Below are positions 180-38,345 of a DNA stretch of 45,424 nt, piece after piece; the stretch's first letter is position 1; each line of letters opens with the position of its first letter. The notes beneath the pieces are model-generated. The model was not told the origin of the DNA. It worked only from the letters and a program-made list of their open reading frames with translations, and ran no database searches. Source of the DNA: Terriglobia bacterium (GTDB lineage: Bacteria; Acidobacteriota; Terriglobia; Bryobacterales; Bryobacteraceae); NCBI GenBank assembly GCA_021324615.1, contig JAJPIT010000045.1, positions 1 to 45,424 on the forward strand. The letters run 5' to 3'. A program made the position numbers and the translations under genes.

Positions 180-447
180 GCGGGGTCGTTGGAAGCTTCA
201 GGCGCCCGGATGAAACGGTGAAACATTGATGACAAGTGGTGTATCCACAGTCAGTTGATGTATTCTGAACGGGGACGGCCTGTGGGTTGTGGGGCGGCTC
301 GTTTTTCGCACGCCGGGAGAGAAGTTACAGGGAACTGCTAGTCCCGCCGATCCCCCGGGAGACCAGTAAACCGGGCGGCAAGTGCAGGGCGCGCGGGACT
401 TAAACGTTTCGGAGGATGTTTGTTTTGCTTGTTTTTGGAGGATATCA
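180..447 (+). other. Divergent leader region, no gene; possibly structured 5' UTR
   Basis: No coding sequence is supported here; it is the space between the divergent rnpB promoter and the OmpA/PKD gene. Bases 320-400 are rich in potential pairing: CCCGG near 354 can pair with CCGGG near 371 around a GAGACCAGTAAA loop, with CCG/CGG outer pairs. I compared it by eye with cobalamin, c-di-GMP-I, c-di-AMP, glycine and fluoride riboswitch cores and found no match. The end holds two purine stretches: GGAGG at about 411, and TTGGAGG at 435-441, which is the ribosome binding site of the next gene. Confidence 0.3.
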
Positions 448-3400
448 ATGCTGAACGGAACCACCCGTCTGCTCGCCATCGCAGCGCTGGGCGCGCTGGC
501 GCTTTCCGCGCAGGGGCTGAACACCAACGCGAGCAAGGATGACTGGGAAGAGATCAATTTCGAGTTCAACTCCGCGGTGCTCTCGGACGGTTACCCGAGC
601 CTGCTTCGTCTGGCGGAGCTTCTGCAAAAGAATCCGGGCTACCACGTGCGGCTGGAAGGCCACACCGACGATATCGGCAGCGGCCAGTACAACGACAAGC
701 TCGGCCTGGCCCGCGCCAACACGGTGCGCGATTTTCTGATCAAGTACGGGGCGCGCGCCAGCCAGATCGAGGTGGCCACGCGCGGCAAGGCGGATCCCAA
801 GTATCCCGGCCAGAAGCCCACCTACAGCAAGACGGACGTTCCGCGCTGGATGAACCGGCGCGTGGTGATGACCGTCACCGACGATCAGGGCCGCACGGTC
901 AGCGCGGCGGGAGTGGGCGAGGCGATCCGGGCCATGGAGCCGGCCAAGCCGCAAGGCATGACCGACTGTTGCAGCGAAGTTCTGAAGCGGCTGGACAAGC
1001 TGGACGACATCGCCCGCATGCTGCAAAGCTTGCAGGATCAGAACGCGCAGTTGCGGCGCGATCTGGACGCGCTGAAACAGCAGCAGCAGGTGCTGGAATC
1101 CAAGGCCAACCAGCCGGTGACGCCGCCGCCGTCGGCCCCCGAAGTGGCCAAGGCGGTGGAGGAAGATCTGAACAAGAATAAACAGCCCAAGTTCCAGCTA
1201 TTGGGCGTGAACGTGGGCGCCGACGACACCGGCCACGTGACCGCCACCGGCCGGGGACGCTTCTTCGGCGTCTTCGAGGATCACTACGCGATTCAGGCGC
1301 AGGCCGAGTACATGTATTTCCACACGCAGAAGGAAGGCCAGTTCGATATCGGTCTGGTGGACCGCATCGGACGTTTTCAGGCGGGCTTGTTTTCGAGCAT
1401 CAAGAACGTTTCGCTCACGGTCGCCTCGCCCAACGGAGCGACTGTCGCGCCGGGGCTGAACATCGTGTCGGTGGGATCGCCCACTGGCGGCGTGCAGGGC
1501 AACGGAACGCTGGGGCAGGCGGCGTTCGTGATGGATTATATTTTCAAGCGCGGCAAGATTGGCGTTTTTGGCACCTACGGGTTTAAGAACACGGCGATCA
1601 TCAACAGCCAAAGGACGGTGCTGCCCAACGGCCTGCTCTCGCCGGACCTGTTTACGCAGACCTATCTGTCGATCGTGAACCAGGCGGGCGTCAGCGCCAC
1701 CGTGGGCCTGTGGGGCAACAACTATGTCGAAGGCACGCTGAGCTATCTGAAGAGCATGGCCTACGGCGACCGGGCCGGGGCGACGCTGCGCTTTGTGTTT
1801 CCGATCAACCAGCACGTGGGCATCAGCGTGGAAGGCGACCTGAACCCGACCATGGTCGGGCCGGGCAACAACGGCCAGGGACTGGTCGGCGTGATTTTCG
1901 GGAACGCGATGCGGCCCAAGGAGTTCGCGGCCGCGACCACGCCGGTTCCGATGACGGTTCCGCGCGTGCAGTGGGAGCAGGTGACGCGCACGGTGCGCAC
2001 CGGCCACACTGCGCCGGTGGCCGACGCGGGTCCCAATCAGATCGGCGTGCCGCCGGGACCGGTTACGCTCAACGGCTCGCGGTCCTATTCGCCGGATGAA
2101 CTTCCGCTGACCTACCAGTGGACGCAGGAGGGCGGCCCCAGCGCGACGCTGTCCAATCCGAGCGACGCGATCACGACCTTTGTGGCGCAGCCCAATTCGA
2201 GCTATCAGTTCCGCCTGACGGTCACCGACAGCCTGGGCGCTTCGGGCACGGCGCGGGTGATGGTGACCACCAGCGCCGGCAATCAGGTGAACATCAGCTA
2301 CTTCATCGCCAACCCGGCGACGATTCAGGCCGGCCAATCCTCGACGCTTTCCTGGAGCGTGGTGGGCGCCACCACCATCTCGATCAGCGGGATCGGCGCG
2401 GTGCAGGCCACCGGCAGCTCCTCGGTGGCTCCGACCGCCACCACCACGTACACGATGACCGCCTCCAATTCGCAGCAGACGGTGACGGCGCAGGTCACGG
2501 TGGTGGTCAACGGATCGACGACGCAGGTAACCTACTGCTACGTGTCGCCGGCGACCATCATCGCGGGTGAATCGGCCACGTTGTACTGGCAGACGATGAA
2601 CGCCAATTCGGTCTCCATCAATCCCGGCAGCGGGACCTACGCGGCCAACGGCAACACCGTGGTGACGCCGACCAGCAGCACGACCTACACGGTGATCGCC
2701 AACGGCGCCAACGGCAGCAGCAACTCGTGCAGCGCCTCGGTGACGGTCACCGCCGGCCAGCTTCCGCGCATCATCCAGTTCTCGGCTTCGCCGCAGAACA
2801 TCACGGCGGGCCAGTCCGCGACGCTGGTGTGGGCGGTGGAGAACGCCACCACGGTGAGCATCAACAACGGCGTCGGCAACAGCTTGTCGCTCGGCGGAAC
2901 GCAGTCCGTGTCGCCGGCGGCAACCACGACGTATACCTTAACCGCGACCAACGCGGCGGGCAGCGTCACCTCCACCACGACCATCAACGTCTCGCCGGCG
3001 GTGACCATCACTTCGTTCACGGCGAGTCCGAATCCGTCGCCATCGTCCGGCGCGAGCGTCACGCTCACCTGCCAGGCGGCCAACGCGGCTTCGGTCACGC
3101 TGAATGGAACCAACACCAACGGCAACAGCGCGACGGTCAATGTCGCGCCGCTGGCGACCACGACTTACACTTGTATCGCCACGGCGGCCAGCGGGCAGAC
3201 CGCGCAGCAATCGCTCACCGTCACCGTTCCGGCTCCGTCGGGCGGCGGCGGCACCAGTCCCAGCACGCCGGTCATCGTGATCCAGGGCGGAACGACGGTG
3301 AACACCAACTTCCGCTTCATCACGCTGAACGCGGCGGGCAGCTACAGCCCCACCGGCAACAATCCGCTGAGCTTTGTCTGGACCTCGCTCAACGACAAGG

Positions 3401-3540
3401 CGTTCATCACCAACCCCAATTCGCCGACGCCGAGCGTTACGCTGGGCTTAACCAGCGGCGTCTACCTGTTCCAGCTCACGGTCACCGACAGCAAGGGCAA
3501 CCAGGCGACGGCGATCGTGACGGTGAACTTCACGATTTAA
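448..3540 (+). CDS. OmpA-domain surface protein with PKD/Ig-like repeats
   Basis: A 1030-residue envelope protein, probably tying peptidoglycan to the outer membrane or cell surface. The start at 448 follows TTGGAGG at 6-nt spacing; the frame opens upstream at 382 but without a comparable RBS. Residues 1-22 form a signal peptide ending in ALALSAQG. An OmpA peptidoglycan-binding domain spans about 33-147, with the GHTDDIGS motif (D74) and the downstream LARA arginine (R89). A Gln-rich coiled coil is at 175-222, and about 248-490 resembles a beta-rich outer-membrane domain. A PKD/REJ-like domain (about 522-610), four or five Ig-like repeats of some 75 residues with a TTTYT strand motif, and a final PKD domain follow. 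OmpA domains usually lie at the C-terminus, so this order is unusual. Ligand unknown. Confidence 0.85.
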   Translation: MLNGTTRLLAIAALGALALSAQGLNTNASKDDWEEINFEFNSAVLSDGYPSLLRLAELLQKNPGYHVRLEGHTDDIGSGQYNDKLGLARANTVRDFLIKYGARASQIEVATRGKADPKYPGQKPTYSKTDVPRWMNRRVVMTVTDDQGRTVSAAGVGEAIRAMEPAKPQGMTDCCSEVLKRLDKLDDIARMLQSLQDQNAQLRRDLDALKQQQQVLESKANQPVTPPPSAPEVAKAVEEDLNKNKQPKFQLLGVNVGADDTGHVTATGRGRFFGVFEDHYAIQAQAEYMYFHTQKEGQFDIGLVDRIGRFQAGLFSSIKNVSLTVASPNGATVAPGLNIVSVGSPTGGVQGNGTLGQAAFVMDYIFKRGKIGVFGTYGFKNTAIINSQRTVLPNGLLSPDLFTQTYLSIVNQAGVSATVGLWGNNYVEGTLSYLKSMAYGDRAGATLRFVFPINQHVGISVEGDLNPTMVGPGNNGQGLVGVIFGNAMRPKEFAAATTPVPMTVPRVQWEQVTRTVRTGHTAPVADAGPNQIGVPPGPVTLNGSRSYSPDELPLTYQWTQEGGPSATLSNPSDAITTFVAQPNSSYQFRLTVTDSLGASGTARVMVTTSAGNQVNISYFIANPATIQAGQSSTLSWSVVGATTISISGIGAVQATGSSSVAPTATTTYTMTASNSQQTVTAQVTVVVNGSTTQVTYCYVSPATIIAGESATLYWQTMNANSVSINPGSGTYAANGNTVVTPTSSTTYTVIANGANGSSNSCSASVTVTAGQLPRIIQFSASPQNITAGQSATLVWAVENATTVSINNGVGNSLSLGGTQSVSPAATTTYTLTATNAAGSVTSTTTINVSPAVTITSFTASPNPSPSSGASVTLTCQAANAASVTLNGTNTNGNSATVNVAPLATTTYTCIATAASGQTAQQSLTVTVPAPSGGGGTSPSTPVIVIQGGTTVNTNFRFITLNAAGSYSPTGNNPLSFVWTSLNDKAFITNPNSPTPSVTLGLTSGVYLFQLTVTDSKGNQATAIVTVNFTI

Positions 3541-19217: not shown

Positions 19218-20891
19218 TTAATGCGGCGATTGTGCGCGGGCTGCCGCGCTCCAGGCGTCCGGCGGGCGTCCGATCAGCGCGGCGACGTCGCGCGCCGAGT
19301 GGAGGCGGCCTTGCAGAGCGGCGAAGACGATCTCGCTTTCCACCACGCTCGAAAAGGCCCGGTCAAAGGCCAGGGAGTCGCGCGCGCCGGCCACTTTGAC
19401 GATCAAGGGCACCAGCGGGGACTGCTTGCCGCCGGTGAGCTGCTCCAGCTCGCTGGTCCAACCCATACGGCCGCGCCATACCGCGGGCCGAAGGCCGTGA
19501 TCGGAGGTGATGACGATGGTGGTCGAATCCCACTGGCCGGACCGCTCCAGAACGCGGCGCAGCTCGCCCACGGTGCGGTCGGCCAAAGCGAGATTGTCGG
19601 CGTAGCTGAGCGAGGAATCCAGGGTGAAGTCGCCGCGTCCGGCGTTGTAGATGGCAAACGGATGCGGGATGGGAAAGTGCGCGAACAAAAGGTCGATCTG
19701 CGGATCGGCGGCCAGGGAGTAAACCAGATCGCGGAGGTGGAAATACTGTTTCTGCTGCCTCCGCTGCACGTACTGATCGCGCCCGCCGGCCGAAACCGGT
19801 TCCGGCGTTCCGCGGCGAAAGATGTCGGCGAGGCTGGTCCATTGCAGAGCGAAGAGAAATGGAACCGACCGCGCCAGGCCCAGCTCCTCCACGCTGGTCT
19901 CGCGAAGCAGAGCCGCGGTGGGATAGCCGCTGGGCAGGTCGGCGCAGCGGACCAGCTCGTCGCCCAGCACCCGGCAGTAGGGATGATGCCAGCCGACCAG
20001 GGCGGAGTTGAATCCGGCGGCGCGCGCCCGTTTAAAAATATTGGGCTCGTCGCGCCAGCTCCGGCCATCCTGTGAACCCGGCGAATAGACGCGCAGGGTG
20101 GAGGCGTCCACCAGATCGGCGCGGGAAAAAAGTTTTCCTGAAAGCAGCGACGGTATGGCCAGCGTGGTCCAGGCGGCGGTCTGTTCGGCGGCCGAAGCGG
20201 TAAAGGACTCGGCGCGCAGCCGGTCGAGCTCCGGCAGAGCCGCTTTGGGGCGGCGCAGATCGAACGCCAGGCGCTGGTCGAACTCGTCGAACACCACCCA
20301 CAGGACGCGGTGGCCCGATCCGTGCCGGGCGAGCATGGGGGCGGGCGGTTTGGAGCGGAAAGCCGATTCAGGCTCGGCCGCGGGGCGGCCCCAGGTGAAA
20401 TCGATCAGCAGCGAGGGGAACAACAGCGTGAGCGCCAGCGTGATGCGCCGCGCCGCGCGCACCACCCTCGGATTGCCGGCCAGGGCCAGCGCCGCGCCGA
20501 TGGCGAGAATCGCTTCCACGCAGACGATTGCGGCGTTGGTGGCCCGATCGTAGGCGGCGCCCTCGGTGTTCCAGTATTGGCGGACCGATTCCAAAGGAAA
20601 CATCAGCGCCAGCAGGAATCCGCAGTAGCCGAATTTCAGCCTGCGCGGCGACGGATTCCGCTCCACCCACCGCCAGGCGGCGTAAAATGCCAGGCTCAGC
20701 AGGCAGCCAGCCGCAATGGTGGCGGCCAGCAGCGCCGGCGTCTCCGGCGCGGCGCGGTAATAATTCATGGAGCGTTCCTGCAAATGCTCCAGATCGTACC
20801 AGCGTCGGAGGAAGCAGAGATTTCCCGCGGAAAAACACAGCAGCAGATTTTTTAGCTGATGGCGCGCCGCCGGCGATATAGATAGATCCAT
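19218..20891 (-). CDS. Membrane-anchored sulfatase/alkaline-phosphatase-fold protein
   Basis: A 557-residue protein starting at ATG 20891, which overlaps the upstream methyltransferase gene by 40 nt and has GGAA just before it. The frame is open further upstream to 21203, but only inside the upstream gene. Five hydrophobic segments occupy the N-terminal third (about 12-30, 53-73, 87-104, 119-139, 149-167). A soluble domain follows with VLWVVFDEFDQ (metal ligand, about 196-206), the ASAAEQTAAWTTLAIPSLLSG nucleophile-loop region, FAHFPIPHPFAIY, and VITSDHGLRP (about residue 440), the hallmark Asp-His pair of the alkaline-phosphatase superfamily. This resembles LtaS/EptA-like enzymes with a membrane part and an extracytoplasmic catalytic domain. 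Substrate unknown; likely acts on a surface polymer. Confidence 0.7.
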   Translation of the reverse strand: MDLSISPAARHQLKNLLLCFSAGNLCFLRRWYDLEHLQERSMNYYRAAPETPALLAATIAAGCLLSLAFYAAWRWVERNPSPRRLKFGYCGFLLALMFPLESVRQYWNTEGAAYDRATNAAIVCVEAILAIGAALALAGNPRVVRAARRITLALTLLFPSLLIDFTWGRPAAEPESAFRSKPPAPMLARHGSGHRVLWVVFDEFDQRLAFDLRRPKAALPELDRLRAESFTASAAEQTAAWTTLAIPSLLSGKLFSRADLVDASTLRVYSPGSQDGRSWRDEPNIFKRARAAGFNSALVGWHHPYCRVLGDELVRCADLPSGYPTAALLRETSVEELGLARSVPFLFALQWTSLADIFRRGTPEPVSAGGRDQYVQRRQQKQYFHLRDLVYSLAADPQIDLLFAHFPIPHPFAIYNAGRGDFTLDSSLSYADNLALADRTVGELRRVLERSGQWDSTTIVITSDHGLRPAVWRGRMGWTSELEQLTGGKQSPLVPLIVKVAGARDSLAFDRAFSSVVESEIVFAALQGRLHSARDVAALIGRPPDAWSAAARAQSPH

Positions 20892-22264
20892 CGTTCCATT
20901 CCGTCGATTCTGGCCGAGCGGACCCGATCGAAGCGCTCGCTGGCGGCGGCTTCGAAGCGCTCGCGCGTCAAATGCGAGTACAGCGCGCCGCGCCCCCGCA
21001 CGATGCGCTTGAAACAAGGATCGTCGGAACCGACGAATTCGATTAGGAGATAGCCGCGGGTGAGCTCTTCGGCCAGGGCGAACAGCTCCTCCAGCGGGAT
21101 GCGCTCGGTTACCAAAATGTGATGAAGCACGGCCAGCATCATCACCAGATCGAAGCCGTGGCGCGCGCGGGCCAGGAACGACGCGCATTCGCGGTTGCGC
21201 CACCCCATGGCGGGGGTGGGGCGCGCCAGATCGACCACCAGCGGGAGCACGTTCAAGCTCCGCCGGGAAGCTTCGCGCCAGATCGCGCCGGCGCAGGTCT
21301 CATCGGAGTCGACCGCCACGACGGATGCGCCGGCCTCGGCGGCGAGAAAGCTGAAGTGTCCCTGATTGGCGCCGGCGTCGAGGACCTCGCCCGGGCGGGC
21401 GATGGCCAGGCAGTCGCGGACGATCTGTTCCTTTTGGGCGAATTGCGCGGGGGTGTAGGAAACCGCGGCGGCGCGCTCCGCCGGCAGGTAGCCGGACCAC
21501 TTCGAAACGCGCCGCGCCGGCTCCAGCGACCGCAACTGGCGGGCGCAGCCGCGCAGGATCCGGTGGAGAATGAACCGCGCCTGGCTGGCGGAAGCGGCCA
21601 GTTTGGGCCGATAGGTGAAGTCGGTTTCACGCCCGCTCAGCCAGGTGGGAATGGAGACCAGATTGAGATACGGCGGAAGCAGCCGGCGCAGCGGCCCGAT
21701 CGTGTGATACACGGCTTCCGGTTCCAGCCCATCGCGCTGCGCGGCGAAGATCGACGCCAGCGGCATCCGTGTTTGGCGATTCGCCAGAAGCGGCAGCAGA
21801 AAGGTCCGCGTGAACTGCCCGTAGGCGAGCCAGGTGGGGTCGCGCGGATCGCGCGGCTCGAAGGAAAGCACGTCCACAAACACCGGGCGGCTGCCGCGGA
21901 ACAAAACGTTGTACGGGGTCGCGTCTTTGATCCCGTAACCTTCCTCCAGCGCCGAGCAGGCCAGATCCAGGGTGAGCTGGCCGGCGGCATGGAGCATTTC
22001 GGGCGGCCACTCGCAGGGGTAGCTCGGAAACCGGATGCGCTCGTGCTCGTAGAGATGGTCGCCCAGCCGCTGCGAGCGGACCAGCGCGCCGCGCTCGATC
22101 GCCCGGGCCGCGGTTTGCGTCGCCAGAAACGCTTCCAGCCCGGCGGCATGGGCCGGATTCACCCGGCGCAAAATGCGCTCGCCGTCCTCAAAGAGCGTCC
22201 CCGCGGGATCGCGGAAGGACTGCGGAGAGAGAGTCCGCTCTTCCGCCGCTTCGCCGGTCCGCAT
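20852..22264 (-). CDS. Kinase-like N-domain fused to class I SAM methyltransferase
   Basis: A 470-residue cytosolic protein. Residues about 100-140 contain LEEGYGIKDATPYNVLF, then RPVFVDVLSFEPRDP, i.e. D114, N119 and D131, arranged as D-x4-N...D like the catalytic and metal loops of kinase-fold proteins such as aminoglycoside kinases. Residues about 290-450 form a Rossmann methyltransferase: VLDAGANQGHFSFLAAEAG (motif I), VVAVDSD, and MMLAVLHHIL. Proteins of this general layout are sometimes called NoeA-related. The ATG at 22264 lies 7 nt after the small membrane gene and the 3' end overlaps the sulfatase-like gene by 40 nt, so the three are one translational unit. Substrate unknown, perhaps a glycan precursor; the kinase-like reading is an inference from motif spacing. 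Confidence 0.65.
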   Translation of the reverse strand: MRTGEAAEERTLSPQSFRDPAGTLFEDGERILRRVNPAHAAGLEAFLATQTAARAIERGALVRSQRLGDHLYEHERIRFPSYPCEWPPEMLHAAGQLTLDLACSALEEGYGIKDATPYNVLFRGSRPVFVDVLSFEPRDPRDPTWLAYGQFTRTFLLPLLANRQTRMPLASIFAAQRDGLEPEAVYHTIGPLRRLLPPYLNLVSIPTWLSGRETDFTYRPKLAASASQARFILHRILRGCARQLRSLEPARRVSKWSGYLPAERAAAVSYTPAQFAQKEQIVRDCLAIARPGEVLDAGANQGHFSFLAAEAGASVVAVDSDETCAGAIWREASRRSLNVLPLVVDLARPTPAMGWRNRECASFLARARHGFDLVMMLAVLHHILVTERIPLEELFALAEELTRGYLLIEFVGSDDPCFKRIVRGRGALYSHLTRERFEAAASERFDRVRSARIDGMERWIYLYRRRRAIS

Positions 22265-22270
22265 GCCCGC

Positions 22271-22477
22271 TTAACGGCGGCGCTTCCAGACGCGGTCCAG
22301 GAACTTCCGGAAATAGAACGTTCCGCCGAGAAACGCCGCGTAAAACGCCTGGTACAAAAAGGCTCCCGTGCCCGGGTCGGCGTAGCCGTAGGCTTTGGCC
22401 GGCGTGGACAACAGCAGCGGCAGGCATGCCAGCAGCAGCGTCGTGGTCGCGTATTTGAAGGATTTCGGTGCAGTCAC
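22271..22477 (-). CDS. Small two-segment membrane protein with DPGTG motif
   Basis: A 68-residue protein from GTG 22477. An N-terminal hydrophobic segment (residues about 8-28, ending STPAKA, signal-peptide-like) is followed by YGYADPGTGAFLYQAFYAAF, a second membrane segment, and a basic tail FLDRVWKRRR. The DPGTG motif followed by a TM helix and Arg/Lys tail is something I recall as recurrent in small proteins next to surface-polymer genes, but I cannot confirm this here. It is first in a three-gene unit with the kinase-like methyltransferase (7 nt) and the sulfatase-fold protein. Only a weak purine run (AAGGG) precedes the start. Role unknown; a partner or scaffold for the membrane sulfatase is plausible. 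Confidence 0.65.
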   Translation of the reverse strand: MTAPKSFKYATTTLLLACLPLLLSTPAKAYGYADPGTGAFLYQAFYAAFLGGTFYFRKFLDRVWKRRR

Positions 22478-36081: not shown

Positions 36082-36105
36082 CGCCGGCAGAGGCTTCAGC
36101 CGGCG
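36082..36105. terminator. GC-rich hairpin between convergent DUF488 and otsA genes
   Basis: CGCCGGC (36082-36088) and GCCGGCG (36099-36105) pair over a 10-nt loop, starting directly after the DUF488 stop and covering the otsA stop. No T-tract follows, as with the palindrome at 26626. It may be a bidirectional or rho-assisted terminator. Confidence 0.4.
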
Positions 36106-38345
36106 CGCGCCAGCAGCCTCGCCGGGGCGGGGCGGTCCTCGGGCCGGTCGAGGCGCAGCGAAATCAACTCGTGAATCAGGGTTCCGGCCCAGCGATAAAT
36201 GTTGTGTTCGCGCAGATAAGCGCGCATCCTTGCCATTCGCGCGCGCTTCTCTTCTGGTGGCATCGCCAGAGCCCGGTGGATCGCCTCGGCCAGTTCGCCG
36301 GTATCGTAGGGATTCACCACCAGGGCGTCCACCAGTTCGTGGCTTGCGCCGGCGAAGCGGGAAAGAATCAGGGCGCCCTGTTCGTCGGCGCGGGAGGCGA
36401 CAAATTCCTTAGCGACCAGATTCATGCCGTCGTGCAGCGAGGTCACCATGCATAAATCGGCCGCGCGGTAATACGGAAGAATTTCGCGGTGGCTGTGATG
36501 CCGCGGCAGAAAGACGATCGGCCGCCAGGCGCCGGCCTCGAAGCGGCCATTGATGCGCGCGGCTTCCTGCTCAACCTCCTCCAGCAGATCGTGATAGCGG
36601 CGGATGTGGGTGCGGCTCGGTGCGCCGATCTGCACAAAGGTGAACTGCCCCCGGTAGGACGGGAACTTTTCGAAAAACATCTCAATCGCGCGGAAGCGCT
36701 CCGGGATGCCCTTGGTGTAATCGACGCGATCGACGCCCACGCCGAGCATGGCCGCATCCACGCCCAGGTTGCGGAACAGCGCCAGGCGGTCCTCCACCGC
36801 CGCGGCCGGCGGGTCGCCGCAGGGAAATGTCACGCTGATGGGGAACGGGCGCACGGCGCTCAGATGCCCGTGGCGCGTCACCGCGAAGCGTTCGCGGTCG
36901 ATGCGCGATTCGAGCGCGCGGTCCACCGTCTCCAGAAAATTATTGCAGTGCGACTGGATATGAAACCCGATCAGGTCGGCGCCCAGCAACCCGTCCAGCA
37001 GCTCGCGCTGCCACGGGCAGATGCCGAACGCTTCGGGATTGGGCCACGGGATGTGCCAGAAAATCGCGACTCGCGCGTCCGGCCGCGCCTCCTTGATCAT
37101 GCGCGGAACCAGGGCGAAGTGGTAATCCTGCACCAGCACCAGCGGATTTGTCTCGCCGGCGGCTTCTTCAAGGAACACATCGGCGAAGCGGCGGTTCACC
37201 GCCTGATACTGCTCCCAATCCTGGGCGCGGAACAGCGGCCGGGTGTGCGCGATGTGGCACAGCGGCCACAGCCCCTCATTGGCGAAGCCGAGATAAAATC
37301 CGTGCTCCTCTTCCTCGGTCAGCCAGACTCGCCGCAGCGTATATTGCGGGGAATCGGGCGGCACGCGAATATGATCGCGCGCGTCCACCGTTTCCCGGTC
37401 GGCGCTGCCGGTGCCTTGCGCGATCCAGGTGCCGTCGGTCGAGCGGAGAATCGGCTCCAGCGCGGTCACCAGGCCGCTGGCCGGAATCGAACATTTCACT
37501 TCGCCATTGTTGCGGATGTGCTCATAGGGCTCGCGGTTGGAGATCGCGAAGATCCGGCAGTGCCCGGCCCTGCTTTCCACGAACGCGCGCAGGCGTTCGG
37601 CAGTCCACTGCGACTCGCCGGCGTCCCGCAGCCGCGCCTCTTCTTGCGCCGCGGCGCGCGCCGCGTGCAGAGTGGTCGCAAGCTGGGCCACTTCGCGGCT
37701 GAGCGGCCCGAAGGAGTCCTCCGGCGGAAGCTCCGGCGTTGCTCCGGCCGATCCGCGGCGAACCTCCCCCAGCCATTGCGTGAGCCGCCTGAGCGGCCGG
37801 CGCAGGCTCCATTGCAGGATCAGTAGAGTGAGGCAGATGATCAGCGCCGCCTGCATGGCCAGCCCGGTGAGGGCATTTTTCCAAAGCGCCCGCTGCCGCG
37901 CTTCGATATATGCCGCATCGTGAAAAAGGGCCAGCGTTCCGGCCGGCGCTCCATTCACCACGACCGGCAGCGCGTAGACGTGCATCAACTGGCCGCGCGA
38001 CCTGAAAAACCGGGAATGCAGATAGGCGCGCGGCGGCTCCTCCAGCCGCGCCGCCAGGCCCGAACTGGCCGCGATCGGCTGCGCCTGCTCGTTGTAGATG
38101 GCGACCCCGGCCAGCCGCTGCCGGTTCTGAAACGCGTTCACCAGAACCTGCAACGGCGCCGGCGAGACCGGAGCCATCAGCGGCGCGGCCGATTTTTCCA
38201 GGCTTTCGGCGAGCAACGCCGCGTGCCGTTCCAGGTCGCGCCGCAGGGCGCTGGTTTCGCTCTGCGTCTGATACAGGGCGATCCCCACCGACACCAGGGT
38301 CACTCCGGCGACAAGCGATAAATTCAAGCGGACGCTGAGGCGCAT
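36096..38345 (-). CDS. otsA: Trehalose-6-phosphate synthase with membrane sensor/HAMP N-terminus
   Basis: A 749-residue fusion. Residues 1-27 are a first TM/signal anchor (LNLSLVAGVTLVSVGIALY). About 28-155 form a periplasmic region with a sensor-like fold (LAGVAIYNEQAQPIAASS, VYALPVVVNGAPAGTLALFHD). A second TM at about 158-180 (ALTGLAMQAALIICLTLLIL) leads into a HAMP-like domain (about 180-235; RPLRRLTQWLGEVRRG). From about 270 comes GT20 OtsA: FAISNREPYEHI, PASGLVTALEP, VQDYHFALVPRM, WHIPWPNPEAF, GVDRVDYTKGIPERF, VQIGAPSR, and TSLHDGMNLVAKEF, retaining the donor and acceptor residues I can recognise. It makes trehalose-6-phosphate from a nucleotide-sugar and glucose-6-phosphate in the cytosol. 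No otsB is nearby. The layout suggests control by an external signal; this is inference. Confidence 0.85.
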   Translation of the reverse strand: MRLSVRLNLSLVAGVTLVSVGIALYQTQSETSALRRDLERHAALLAESLEKSAAPLMAPVSPAPLQVLVNAFQNRQRLAGVAIYNEQAQPIAASSGLAARLEEPPRAYLHSRFFRSRGQLMHVYALPVVVNGAPAGTLALFHDAAYIEARQRALWKNALTGLAMQAALIICLTLLILQWSLRRPLRRLTQWLGEVRRGSAGATPELPPEDSFGPLSREVAQLATTLHAARAAAQEEARLRDAGESQWTAERLRAFVESRAGHCRIFAISNREPYEHIRNNGEVKCSIPASGLVTALEPILRSTDGTWIAQGTGSADRETVDARDHIRVPPDSPQYTLRRVWLTEEEEHGFYLGFANEGLWPLCHIAHTRPLFRAQDWEQYQAVNRRFADVFLEEAAGETNPLVLVQDYHFALVPRMIKEARPDARVAIFWHIPWPNPEAFGICPWQRELLDGLLGADLIGFHIQSHCNNFLETVDRALESRIDRERFAVTRHGHLSAVRPFPISVTFPCGDPPAAAVEDRLALFRNLGVDAAMLGVGVDRVDYTKGIPERFRAIEMFFEKFPSYRGQFTFVQIGAPSRTHIRRYHDLLEEVEQEAARINGRFEAGAWRPIVFLPRHHSHREILPYYRAADLCMVTSLHDGMNLVAKEFVASRADEQGALILSRFAGASHELVDALVVNPYDTGELAEAIHRALAMPPEEKRARMARMRAYLREHNIYRWAGTLIHELISLRLDRPEDRPAPARLLARAG

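What the first reader, a model, noticed from the sequence alone, without database searches (positions are those of the whole stretch)
19218..22477. Three-gene unit: DPGTG mini-protein, kinase-like/methyltransferase fusion, membrane sulfatase-fold protein
The three genes are packed with a 6-nt gap and a 40-nt overlap, so they are translationally coupled. The fusion protein pairs a D-x4-N...D motif of kinase-fold type (D114, N119, D131) with a Rossmann methyltransferase. The sulfatase-fold protein has about five N-terminal TM helices, and the small protein has a DPGTG motif and a basic tail. I recall similar small DPGTG proteins near surface-polymer genes but know no description of this trio as a system. 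It may phosphorylate, methylate and decorate a surface glycan. An ADOP permease follows.
Basis: partly seen in the sequence, partly recalled or inferred. Interest (0 to 1): 0.65.

Follow-up and report, generated by a model that had tools for sequence, protein, structure and literature searches.

The report
NoeA-NoeB cassette with a mini-protein
Three adjacent genes in a probable acidobacterium form a compact unit found in many bacterial phyla: two are relatives of the rhizobial host-range genes noeA and noeB, and the third is a tiny membrane protein that nearly always travels with them, which suggests what these long-unexplained genes may do.

Summary
In detail: a 68-aa membrane mini-protein (Y-x-DPGTG), a kinase-like/methyltransferase fusion and a membrane alkaline-phosphatase-superfamily enzyme lie in one tight run. 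The last two are relatives of NoeA and NoeB from the Sinorhizobium nodL-noeA-noeB operon; a 2022 Legionella kinome paper already calls the NoeA family kinase+methyltransferase with conserved neighbours, so the trio is not wholly new. New here: (1) the mini-protein is the most faithful third member, present in 76 of 83 noeA-like loci, also between nodL and noeA; genome-wide it occurs mostly with NoeA (35 of 37 in the window's class, 15 of 15 Planctomycetota, 7 of 10 Pseudomonadota, the other 3 weak). (2) No other gene family recurs in more than 9 of 113 loci; those that do are sugar genes. (3) Gene order varies, and five genomes with scattered genes keep all three. (4) Residues WbdD needs to methylate a phosphate (two His, one Arg) align with invariant NoeA residues. 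Best reading: a membrane-bound cassette in which NoeA phosphorylates and methyl-caps an envelope or secreted glycan (or lipid), NoeB works on phosphoesters outside, and the mini-protein couples them. The unit is shown; chemistry and coupling are inferred.

The parts
22271..22477 (-). Gene D: 68-aa DPG mini-protein (signal-like N-segment, Y-x-DPGTG motif, one membrane helix, basic tail)
   Evidence: Family profile finds it in 76 of 83 noeA-like loci; no Pfam or NCBIfam match for the window protein, only chance-level hits in 46 members; purifying selection
22364..22378 (-). DPGTG motif of gene D (residues 34-38)
   Evidence: Read directly; Y, D, P and G each in 90 of 95 distinct cores
22385..22477 (-). 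Signal-peptide-like N-segment of gene D (about residues 1-31)
   Evidence: Hydrophobic N-segment in 92 of 120 family members; A or G immediately before the Tyr of the motif in 102 of 120; cleavage inferred
20852..22264 (-). Gene A: NoeA-family kinase-like/methyltransferase fusion, 470 aa
   Evidence: AF2 pLDDT 93.4
21515..22219 (-). Kinase-like N-domain of gene A (about residues 16-250)
   Evidence: Secondary-structure order; R33, D114, N119, D131 invariant; boundary approximate
21872..21925 (-). Catalytic-loop/DFG-equivalent stretch D114...N119...D131
   Evidence: Invariant in 33 of 33 and 28 of 28 rows not selected on this motif
20852..21514 (-). Methyltransferase domain of gene A (about residues 251-470, with stop codon)
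   Evidence: PF13489 33.6 bits, cut-off 27; WbdD hhalign probability 97.0
21119..21124 (-). H381-H382, aligned with WbdD H132-H133
   Evidence: invariant
20891..20893 (-). R458, aligned with WbdD R203
   Evidence: 6 of 6 alignment runs; invariant
19218..20891 (-). Gene B: NoeB-like membrane enzyme, alkaline-phosphatase superfamily, 557 aa
   Evidence: PF00884 45.6 bits and PF01663 38 bits, both above cut-off; AF2 pLDDT 89.8; best VIA Z 25.2, 299 residues, rmsd 3.7
20286..20288 (-). D202 of gene B, metal-ligand position
   Evidence: 41 of 41; role inferred
20166..20168 (-). T242 of gene B, nucleophile position
   Evidence: T in 40 of 41, S in 1; role inferred
19497..19502 (-). D464-H465 of gene B, metal-ligand position
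   Evidence: 41 of 41 each; role inferred

Best explanation
The three genes are one functional cassette (D = DPG mini-protein, A = NoeA family, B = NoeB-like). A works in the cytoplasm as a WbdD-like pair of activities: its kinase domain phosphorylates a sugar (or lipid headgroup) of an envelope or secreted molecule and its methyltransferase domain methylates that phosphate, leaving a methyl-phosphodiester cap. B, anchored by about five membrane helices with its catalytic domain outside, breaks or transfers phosphoesters on the same or a partner molecule with a Thr nucleophile. D sits in the inner membrane with the Y-x-DPG[ST]G end outside and the basic tail inside, and holds A at the membrane next to B. 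Shown: the genes, their conservation and linkage, the invariant residues, the predicted fold of B. Inferred: kinase activity, phosphate as methyl acceptor, B's chemistry, all topologies, D's role, and the substrate.
For: Linkage: D in 76, B in 64, both in 63 of 83 loci with A, D directly upstream in 73; D in 26 of 30 loci from Pseudomonadota, Bacteroidota and Planctomycetota. Orders DAB, DBA, BDA, ADB and BAD all occur. Genome level, in 151 genomes of the window's class: full-length A in 37 and D in 37, 35 shared; close B (best E 2.2e-40 or better; the next genome has 2.4e-30) in 25, all 25 with A and D. Pseudomonadota: A in 7 of 249, all 7 with D. Planctomycetota: D in 15 of 199, all 15 with A. 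Five genomes with the genes scattered keep all three. No other family of ORFs of 100 aa or more recurs in more than 9 of 113 loci; two of the recurring ones, tested by five of their genes, are nucleotide-sugar epimerases/dehydratases (9 loci) and family-2 glycosyltransferases (6 loci), together 10 loci, which points to glycans. Chemistry: WbdD is the best PDB profile match, over the methyltransferase part only (E 3.8e-7; 1.4e-6). Its H132A, H133A and R203A mutants phosphorylate but do not methylate (PMC3482155 section 6); these residues align with invariant H381, H382 and R458. D: one hydrophobic stretch after the motif in 114 of 120, positive tail in 119 of 120.
Against: No measured activity of a family member was found in the passages I read. 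The D and B profiles were built from copies beside A, so divergent D or B in genomes without A may be under-counted, and 'close B' is close partly by construction. The phylum samples include their centre genome, which was chosen for having A. Counts are not corrected for kinship. The His pair does not single out phosphate methylases: NodS and RebM carry two His or two Tyr there. WbdD's fourth residue, Y16, did not align with invariant Y259 in any of 6 runs. The kinase domain gave no significant match to WbdD (probability 0.3), PDB or Pfam. B is missing from 19 of 83 loci, four of them (L054, L077, L083, L100) cut by contig ends, and in some phyla a distant superfamily member stands in. Of 16 D hits examined away from the main A locus, 8 stood alone, 6 were beside B, 1 beside a weak A match, 1 looked spurious; three weak ones (G035, G056, G268) were not examined. 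D without A occurs in 2 genomes of the class (plus 2 at E 0.003-0.009) and weakly in 3 Pseudomonadota. A without D: 2 of 37 in the class, 4 of 19 in Planctomycetota (one at a contig edge, three with weaker, divergent or partial A).
Confidence: 0.42

Rival explanations
1. The DPG mini-protein is the substrate: a small exported membrane peptide that A and B modify (for example at its Tyr or Ser/Thr), which then acts at the surface.
For: It is the most faithful partner of A and also pairs with B alone; its motif is strongly conserved and lies where a mature N-terminus could be: A or G precedes the Tyr in 102 of 120, and some forms without a signal-like segment could start a few residues before it.
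Against: The obvious hydroxyl acceptor is not fixed: the fourth motif position is S 51, T 31, A 6 of 95. The motif is predicted outside while A is predicted cytoplasmic. The membrane helix and basic tail are conserved too, more like a structural part.
Confidence: 0.2
2. The cassette modifies a dedicated signal molecule as proposed for Nod factors; its use in rhizobia is the original function.
For: In Rhizobium sp. T136 the trio directly follows nodL; papers describe noeA/noeB as host-specific nodulation genes (passages), and a strain with truncated noeA did not nodulate 17 of 27 Medicago truncatula genotypes (PMC4053727 passage).
Against: The carriers found include many acidobacteria, planctomycetes and other lineages not known to me as rhizobia. 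The acetyltransferase family at the nodL position recurs in 3 of 113 loci; other nod genes were not searched for. PMC3899959 notes a noeA orthologue in a non-symbiont (passage).
Confidence: 0.1
3. The methyltransferase does not act on a phosphate but on a sugar amine, hydroxyl or carboxyl, and the kinase-like domain is a substrate-binding or regulatory pseudokinase.
For: Foldseek's first hit for the model is the N-methyltransferase NodS (E 4.5e-8); the kinase-like domain seems to have Arg in place of the usual Lys (R33 here by inference; PMC9758233 says so of R38 in its relative).
Against: D114, N119 and D131 are invariant in 61 of 61 rows not selected on the motif, unusual for a pseudokinase; [quoted passage not shown]
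Confidence: 0.23
4. The genes are only habitual neighbours without a common function.
For: Tight packing is common in bacterial genomes; B is absent from 19 of 83 loci.
Against: Linkage survives order changes and phyla, the genes co-occur even when scattered, and little else nearby recurs. Distances in the A and B gene trees correlate (Mantel r 0.75, 0 of 999 permutations as high, 82 loci), though shared descent alone could give that.
Confidence: 0.04

Closest known systems
NoeA/NoeB of Sinorhizobium meliloti (nodL-noeA-noeB operon)
   Same: A is a full-length homologue of the protein encoded downstream of nodL in rhizobia (about 31% over 95-96% of its length), and the trio D-A-B stands there in the same order
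   Different: No nodL beside it here; B is only distantly similar to the rhizobial protein (14-15%); the small gene D between nodL and noeA is not named in the passages I read
Lani_1194 family and neighbours Lani_1193/Lani_1195 (PMC9758233)
   Same: Same kinase+methyltransferase family (NoeA named as homologue) with an alkaline-phosphatase-fold neighbour; the paper proposes a conserved unit
   Different: Section 8 does not describe Lani_1193, the neighbour in 65% of 816 loci; by its place between an acetylase and the kinase it is probably the DPG mini-protein, but I could not open the supplement. In the text seen, the WbdD comparison is drawn for another family (Lcin_0519) and phosphate methylation is not discussed for this one
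WbdD of E. coli O9/O9a
   Same: Kinase and methyltransferase in one protein; phosphate-methylation residues H132, H133, R203 align with invariant H381, H382, R458
   Different: Domain order reversed (methyltransferase first in WbdD); WbdD has a C-terminal coiled coil and stands in an O-antigen export cluster; D and B profiles find nothing in 49 kb around it in E. coli HS
LTA synthase / phosphoethanolamine transferase-like membrane enzymes of the alkaline phosphatase superfamily
   Same: N-terminal membrane helices plus external domain with conserved D, T, H, D, H (comparison recalled); the Singulisphaera homologue is annotated 'LTA synthase family protein'
   Different: No NCBIfam model reaches its cut-off; substrate unknown
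PbgA/YejM
   Same: First Foldseek hit for B (6xlp, E 2.8e-9): membrane helices plus sulfatase-type domain
   Different: From recall PbgA lacks a catalytic site; B keeps D202, T242, H410, D464, H465

Membership tests
NoeA family | Full-length homology to the protein downstream of nodL (kinase-like + methyltransferase) | tested here: met
   residues 14-465 of 470 align with Rhizobium sp. T136, where annotated nodL lies upstream. The name NoeA comes from papers and position, not from an annotation in the records seen
NoeA family | Catalytic D/N/D of the kinase domain conserved | tested here: met
   33 of 33 and 28 of 28
NoeB family | Membrane alkaline-phosphatase-superfamily protein encoded next to noeA | tested here: met
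   membership is superfamily-level because identity to the rhizobial protein is 14-15%
Protein-kinase-like fold | Order beta2-beta3-alphaC-beta4-beta5-alphaE-beta6-catalytic loop-beta7-beta8-DFG | tested here: inconclusive
   Secondary-structure order of the model fits (assignment is mine) and PMC9758233 reports a kinase-fold model for the family, but no fold search of the N-domain alone was run and sequence profiles found no kinase
WbdD family | Methyltransferase residues needed for phosphate methylation (Y16, H132, H133, R203) | tested here: inconclusive
   H132, H133, R203 aligned with invariant residues in 6 of 6 runs; Y16 did not align with Y259
WbdD family | Domain order methyltransferase-kinase-coiled coil | tested here: not met
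   Order is kinase-like then methyltransferase, no C-terminal extension (WbdD order from PMC3482155 section 5)
S1 formylglycine sulfatase | Cys or Ser converted to formylglycine in a C/S-x-P-x-R motif | tested here: not met
   Nucleophile position is Thr in 40 of 41, Ser in 1; motif definition recalled
LTA synthase / EptA-like transferases | Transfer of a phospholipid headgroup to an acceptor | not testable with these tools
   Residue pattern compatible; activity needs an assay

The most novel reading that the evidence does not exclude
A widespread, self-contained three-protein machine that spans the inner membrane: a cytoplasmic kinase/phosphate-methyltransferase puts methyl-phosphate caps on a glycan or lipid, an external Thr-nucleophile enzyme finishes or transfers the phosphoester, and a protein of roughly 40 to 90 residues, from a family without a Pfam or NCBIfam model, ties the two together. 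Rhizobia recruited it as noeA-noeB to set host range.
Probability: 0.27. Interest if true: 0.78.

Novelty: new variant of a known kind. Interest (0 to 1): 0.56.

Why it matters
noeA and noeB have been cited as host-range genes since a 1995 paper (reference seen; paper itself not held). In the passages I read their biochemistry is only hypothesised, and PMC9758233 calls its family member functionally uncharacterised. If the mini-protein is a required third part, work on noeA and noeB alone could have missed it. The WbdD alignment gives a concrete assay: look for a methyl-phosphate on Nod factor, lipid or envelope glycan. The spread over many phyla that, as far as I recall, hold no rhizobia says the function is general and was borrowed for symbiosis.

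Tried and rejected
Fusion as proof of partnership: one ORF in L077 seemed to join the mini-protein to the NoeA-like protein, but unknown residues (XX) sit at the junction, i.e. an assembly gap; rejected as a fusion, though L077 is one of the 76 loci counted with D. Kinase fold by sequence: N-domain profile against PDB (2 hits, best E 0.9, two small proteins without relevance), 40 N-domains against Pfam (no kinase family), hhalign with WbdD (probability 0.3): no support. Solved structure for the mini-protein: none. Signature invariance: the genome-contig scan used a pattern containing the catalytic motif, so D114/N119 conservation in those 80 loci is biased; I used instead. P20 looked invariant but is P in only 18 of 28 rows elsewhere. 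Further operon partners: none above 9 of 113 loci; no background rate was computed for the sugar genes near 10 of 113. S. meliloti 1021 pSymA: the stretch fetched carries no annotation and was not used. Papers: 'DPGTG' 0, 'DPGSG' 0, 'DPGTG'+'methyltransferase' 0, 'Lani_1194' 1 paper, 'noeA'+'noeB' 7 papers: of these I read one section and passages in PMC9758233, passages in PMC10945364, PMC4053727, PMC3899959 and PMC9048898, and saw only the listing of the other 2. Of PMC3482155 I read the abstract and sections 5-7. The 1995 paper is not held. Supplements could not be read, so the identity of Lani_1193 stays open. Rows dropped: the centre G151; G519 (weak) and the centre G152; G688 (weak) and the centre G153, before the 30 loci; one search used 28 of those 30 (350-aa filter); A2 left out motif variants such as L064, L072, L074, L102 and L109.
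Full report
What is there. On the minus strand lie three packed genes: a 68-aa protein (22271-22477), a 470-aa protein (20852-22264) after a 6-nt gap, and a 557-aa protein (19218-20891) overlapping it by 40 nt. I call them D, A and B. An ADOP permease follows. The window is contig 58 of a 3.9-Mb assembly with one copy each of A, B and D found. Its organism is not told; the nearest named relatives of A (62-65% identical) are Acidobacteriota. Family scans: D nothing; A a class I methyltransferase in its C-terminal half only; B the Sulfatase and Phosphodiest families.

What A is. tblastn against plasmids finds relatives in 65 records, 57 of them Sinorhizobium. In Rhizobium sp. T136 the order is nodL, a 71-aa hypothetical protein, an A homologue and a sulfatase-like protein; in S. 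meliloti a hexapeptide acetyltransferase stands at the nodL place. This is the nodL-noeA-noeB arrangement named in papers (passages). PMC9758233 (section 8 read in full) describes the same family in Legionella as kinase plus methyltransferase, names NoeA as homologue, reports neighbours in 65% and 38% of 816 loci and suggests a conserved functional unit. So A and B are members of families in print whose chemistry is unknown in the text I saw.

The third member. A profile of D finds it in 76 of 83 loci (80 from a genome scan, 3 plasmids), in 73 of them directly upstream of A; B is in 64, both in 63; the order D-A-B occurs in 56. These 80 loci were the best-scoring of 580 and lean to Acidobacteriota. 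In samples drawn without that bias, 30 loci from Pseudomonadota (6), Bacteroidota (7) and Planctomycetota (17) hold D in 26 and a B-type gene in 22, one of these on the opposite strand only; orders include D-A-B, D-B-A, B-A-D and A-D-B. The small ORFs of Rhizobium and S. meliloti are D.

Genome-level test. In 151 genomes of the window's class, full-length A (E below 1e-40) is in 37 and D (E below 1e-8) in 37, 35 shared; A without D in 2, D without A in 2; 6 further genomes have weak partial A matches and 2 weak D matches (Fisher p 1.7e-29, not corrected for kinship). Close B (best E 2.2e-40 or better) is in 25 genomes, all with A and D. Five genomes of one genus carry A apart from D and B, yet keep all three; in one of them D and B are adjacent. 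In 249 Pseudomonadota, A is in 7, D in those 7 and, weakly (E 5e-5 to 6e-4), in 3 others, one of which has a B-type gene next to D. In 199 Planctomycetota, A is in 19 (some weak or partial), D in 15, all 15 with A. D was not searched genome-wide in Bacteroidota. The phylum samples include the centre genome, chosen for having A. The D and B profiles were built from copies beside A, so divergent copies elsewhere may be missed. Clustering of neighbouring ORFs of 100 aa or more in 113 loci shows no other family in more than 9 loci. Two of the recurring ones, judged by five of their genes, are nucleotide-sugar epimerases/dehydratases (9 loci) and family-2 glycosyltransferases (6 loci), together 10 loci. 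So the cassette is self-contained, with a minority near envelope-sugar genes; no background rate was computed. A Singulisphaera plasmid carries it. In the A tree several phyla are split, which would fit transfer but does not prove it.

Anatomy of D. In 120 distinct members that match the motif expression (one more did not), 92 have a hydrophobic N-segment, 102 have A or G just before the Tyr of Y-x-DPG (a signal-peptidase-like site), 114 have a hydrophobic stretch after the motif, and 119 a net positive tail. Some members without the N-segment could begin a few residues before the Tyr, for example M-Y-I-DPGSG in L099. Both forms would put the motif at the outer N-terminus and the tail inside; this is inference. 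Motif types: DPGSG 52, DPGTG 36, the other 32 variants. No Pfam or NCBIfam family and no solved structure matches meaningfully. Third-position bias and low dN against dS show a real gene.

Chemistry of A. The model is confident (pLDDT 93.4). The N-domain shows strands, helices, the D114-N119 loop, two strands and D131 in the order expected of a kinase; R33 would stand for the usual Lys. Searches with the N-domain alone gave no kinase, so this rests on secondary structure, the fixed residues (33 of 33 and 28 of 28) and the published model of a relative. The methyltransferase profile hits WbdD first in the PDB, and hhalign with WbdD gives probability 97.0. In WbdD, H132A, H133A, R203A and Y16F keep phosphorylation but lose methylation of the phosphate (PMC3482155 section 6 read). 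H132, H133 and R203 fall on H381, H382 and R458 in 6 of 6 runs, all invariant in 61 of 61 rows, the window's own included. Y16 was not resolved; Y259, also invariant, is a candidate by position. The two His alone do not identify a phosphate methylase, as NodS and RebM have His or Tyr pairs there, but the Arg is reported as not structurally conserved in them.

Chemistry of B. The model (pLDDT 89.8) has about five membrane-length helices, then a sulfatase/alkaline-phosphatase fold (Z 22.8 to 25.2 in the 50 rows shown; first Foldseek hit PbgA). D202, H410, Y430, D464 and H465 are in 41 of 41, T242 in 40 of 41. That looks like a catalytically complete Thr enzyme, compatible with headgroup transferases or phosphodiesterases, and not a formylglycine sulfatase. 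In several loci, mostly outside Acidobacteriota, a more distant superfamily member takes the place.

Mechanism. Best reading: A phosphorylates and methyl-caps a glycan or lipid on the inner face, B acts on phosphoesters outside, D couples them. D stands with A but without B in 11 of 83 and 5 of 30 loci (some cut by contig ends), and with B but apart from A in five same-strand pairs (L148, L149, L150, L243, L245) plus one opposite-strand neighbour (L241), whereas A with B but without D was seen in L040 and, at a contig edge, L227. This makes D the common partner. But 8 of 16 off-locus D genes examined stood alone, and nothing shows contact. Rivals: D as substrate; non-phosphate methylation with a pseudokinase; a Nod-factor-like signal only; mere neighbours.

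Verdict. Two members belong to families in print. The third member, its faithful co-occurrence, the self-contained nature of the unit and the phosphate-methylation residues are, as far as my searches go, not described, with the reservation that Lani_1193 of PMC9758233 may be the mini-protein in a supplement I could not read.

Noticed in passing
L032 6751-6966; L033 6709-6957: The small ORF between nodL and noeA of rhizobia is annotated only as a hypothetical protein (71 aa) in one record, and the S. meliloti record shows no annotation there; it is a member of the DPG family.
   Followed up: yes
L039 7498-8133; L004 3071-3760: In two acidobacterial loci the DPG mini-protein continues in frame into a further stretch of about 120 residues, in L039 visibly hydrophobic with several membrane-like segments.
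   Followed up: no
L064, L072, L074, L102: Loci labelled Bdellovibrionota or Myxococcota carry a variant motif (YINPSSG or YIDPSSG) and no B hit in the locus; a pair of ORFs of about 350 to 390 aa lies on the other strand downstream.
   Followed up: no
L255, L256: Two genomes of one genus have D-A with two or three more distant alkaline-phosphatase-superfamily genes nearby, most on the opposite strand.
   Followed up: no
L031: The trio lies on a 55-kb Singulisphaera acidiphila plasmid near parA/parB, a replication gene and an IS4 transposase; D is not in the listed gene table.
   Followed up: partly
L150-L154, L247-L250: In five genomes of one genus the cassette has broken up, with A, D and B at separate places but none lost; D keeps B beside it in one genome.
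   Followed up: partly
L052, L214, L218, L223 and six other loci: Ten of 113 loci have nucleotide-sugar epimerase/dehydratase-type or family-2 glycosyltransferase-type genes within the fetched flanks.
   Followed up: partly
window 382-3540: A 1052-aa ORF combines an OmpA domain with PKD domains.
   Followed up: no
window 36096-38345: A 749-aa protein has a C-terminal glycosyltransferase family 20 domain and an unassigned N-terminal part of about 260 residues.
   Followed up: no
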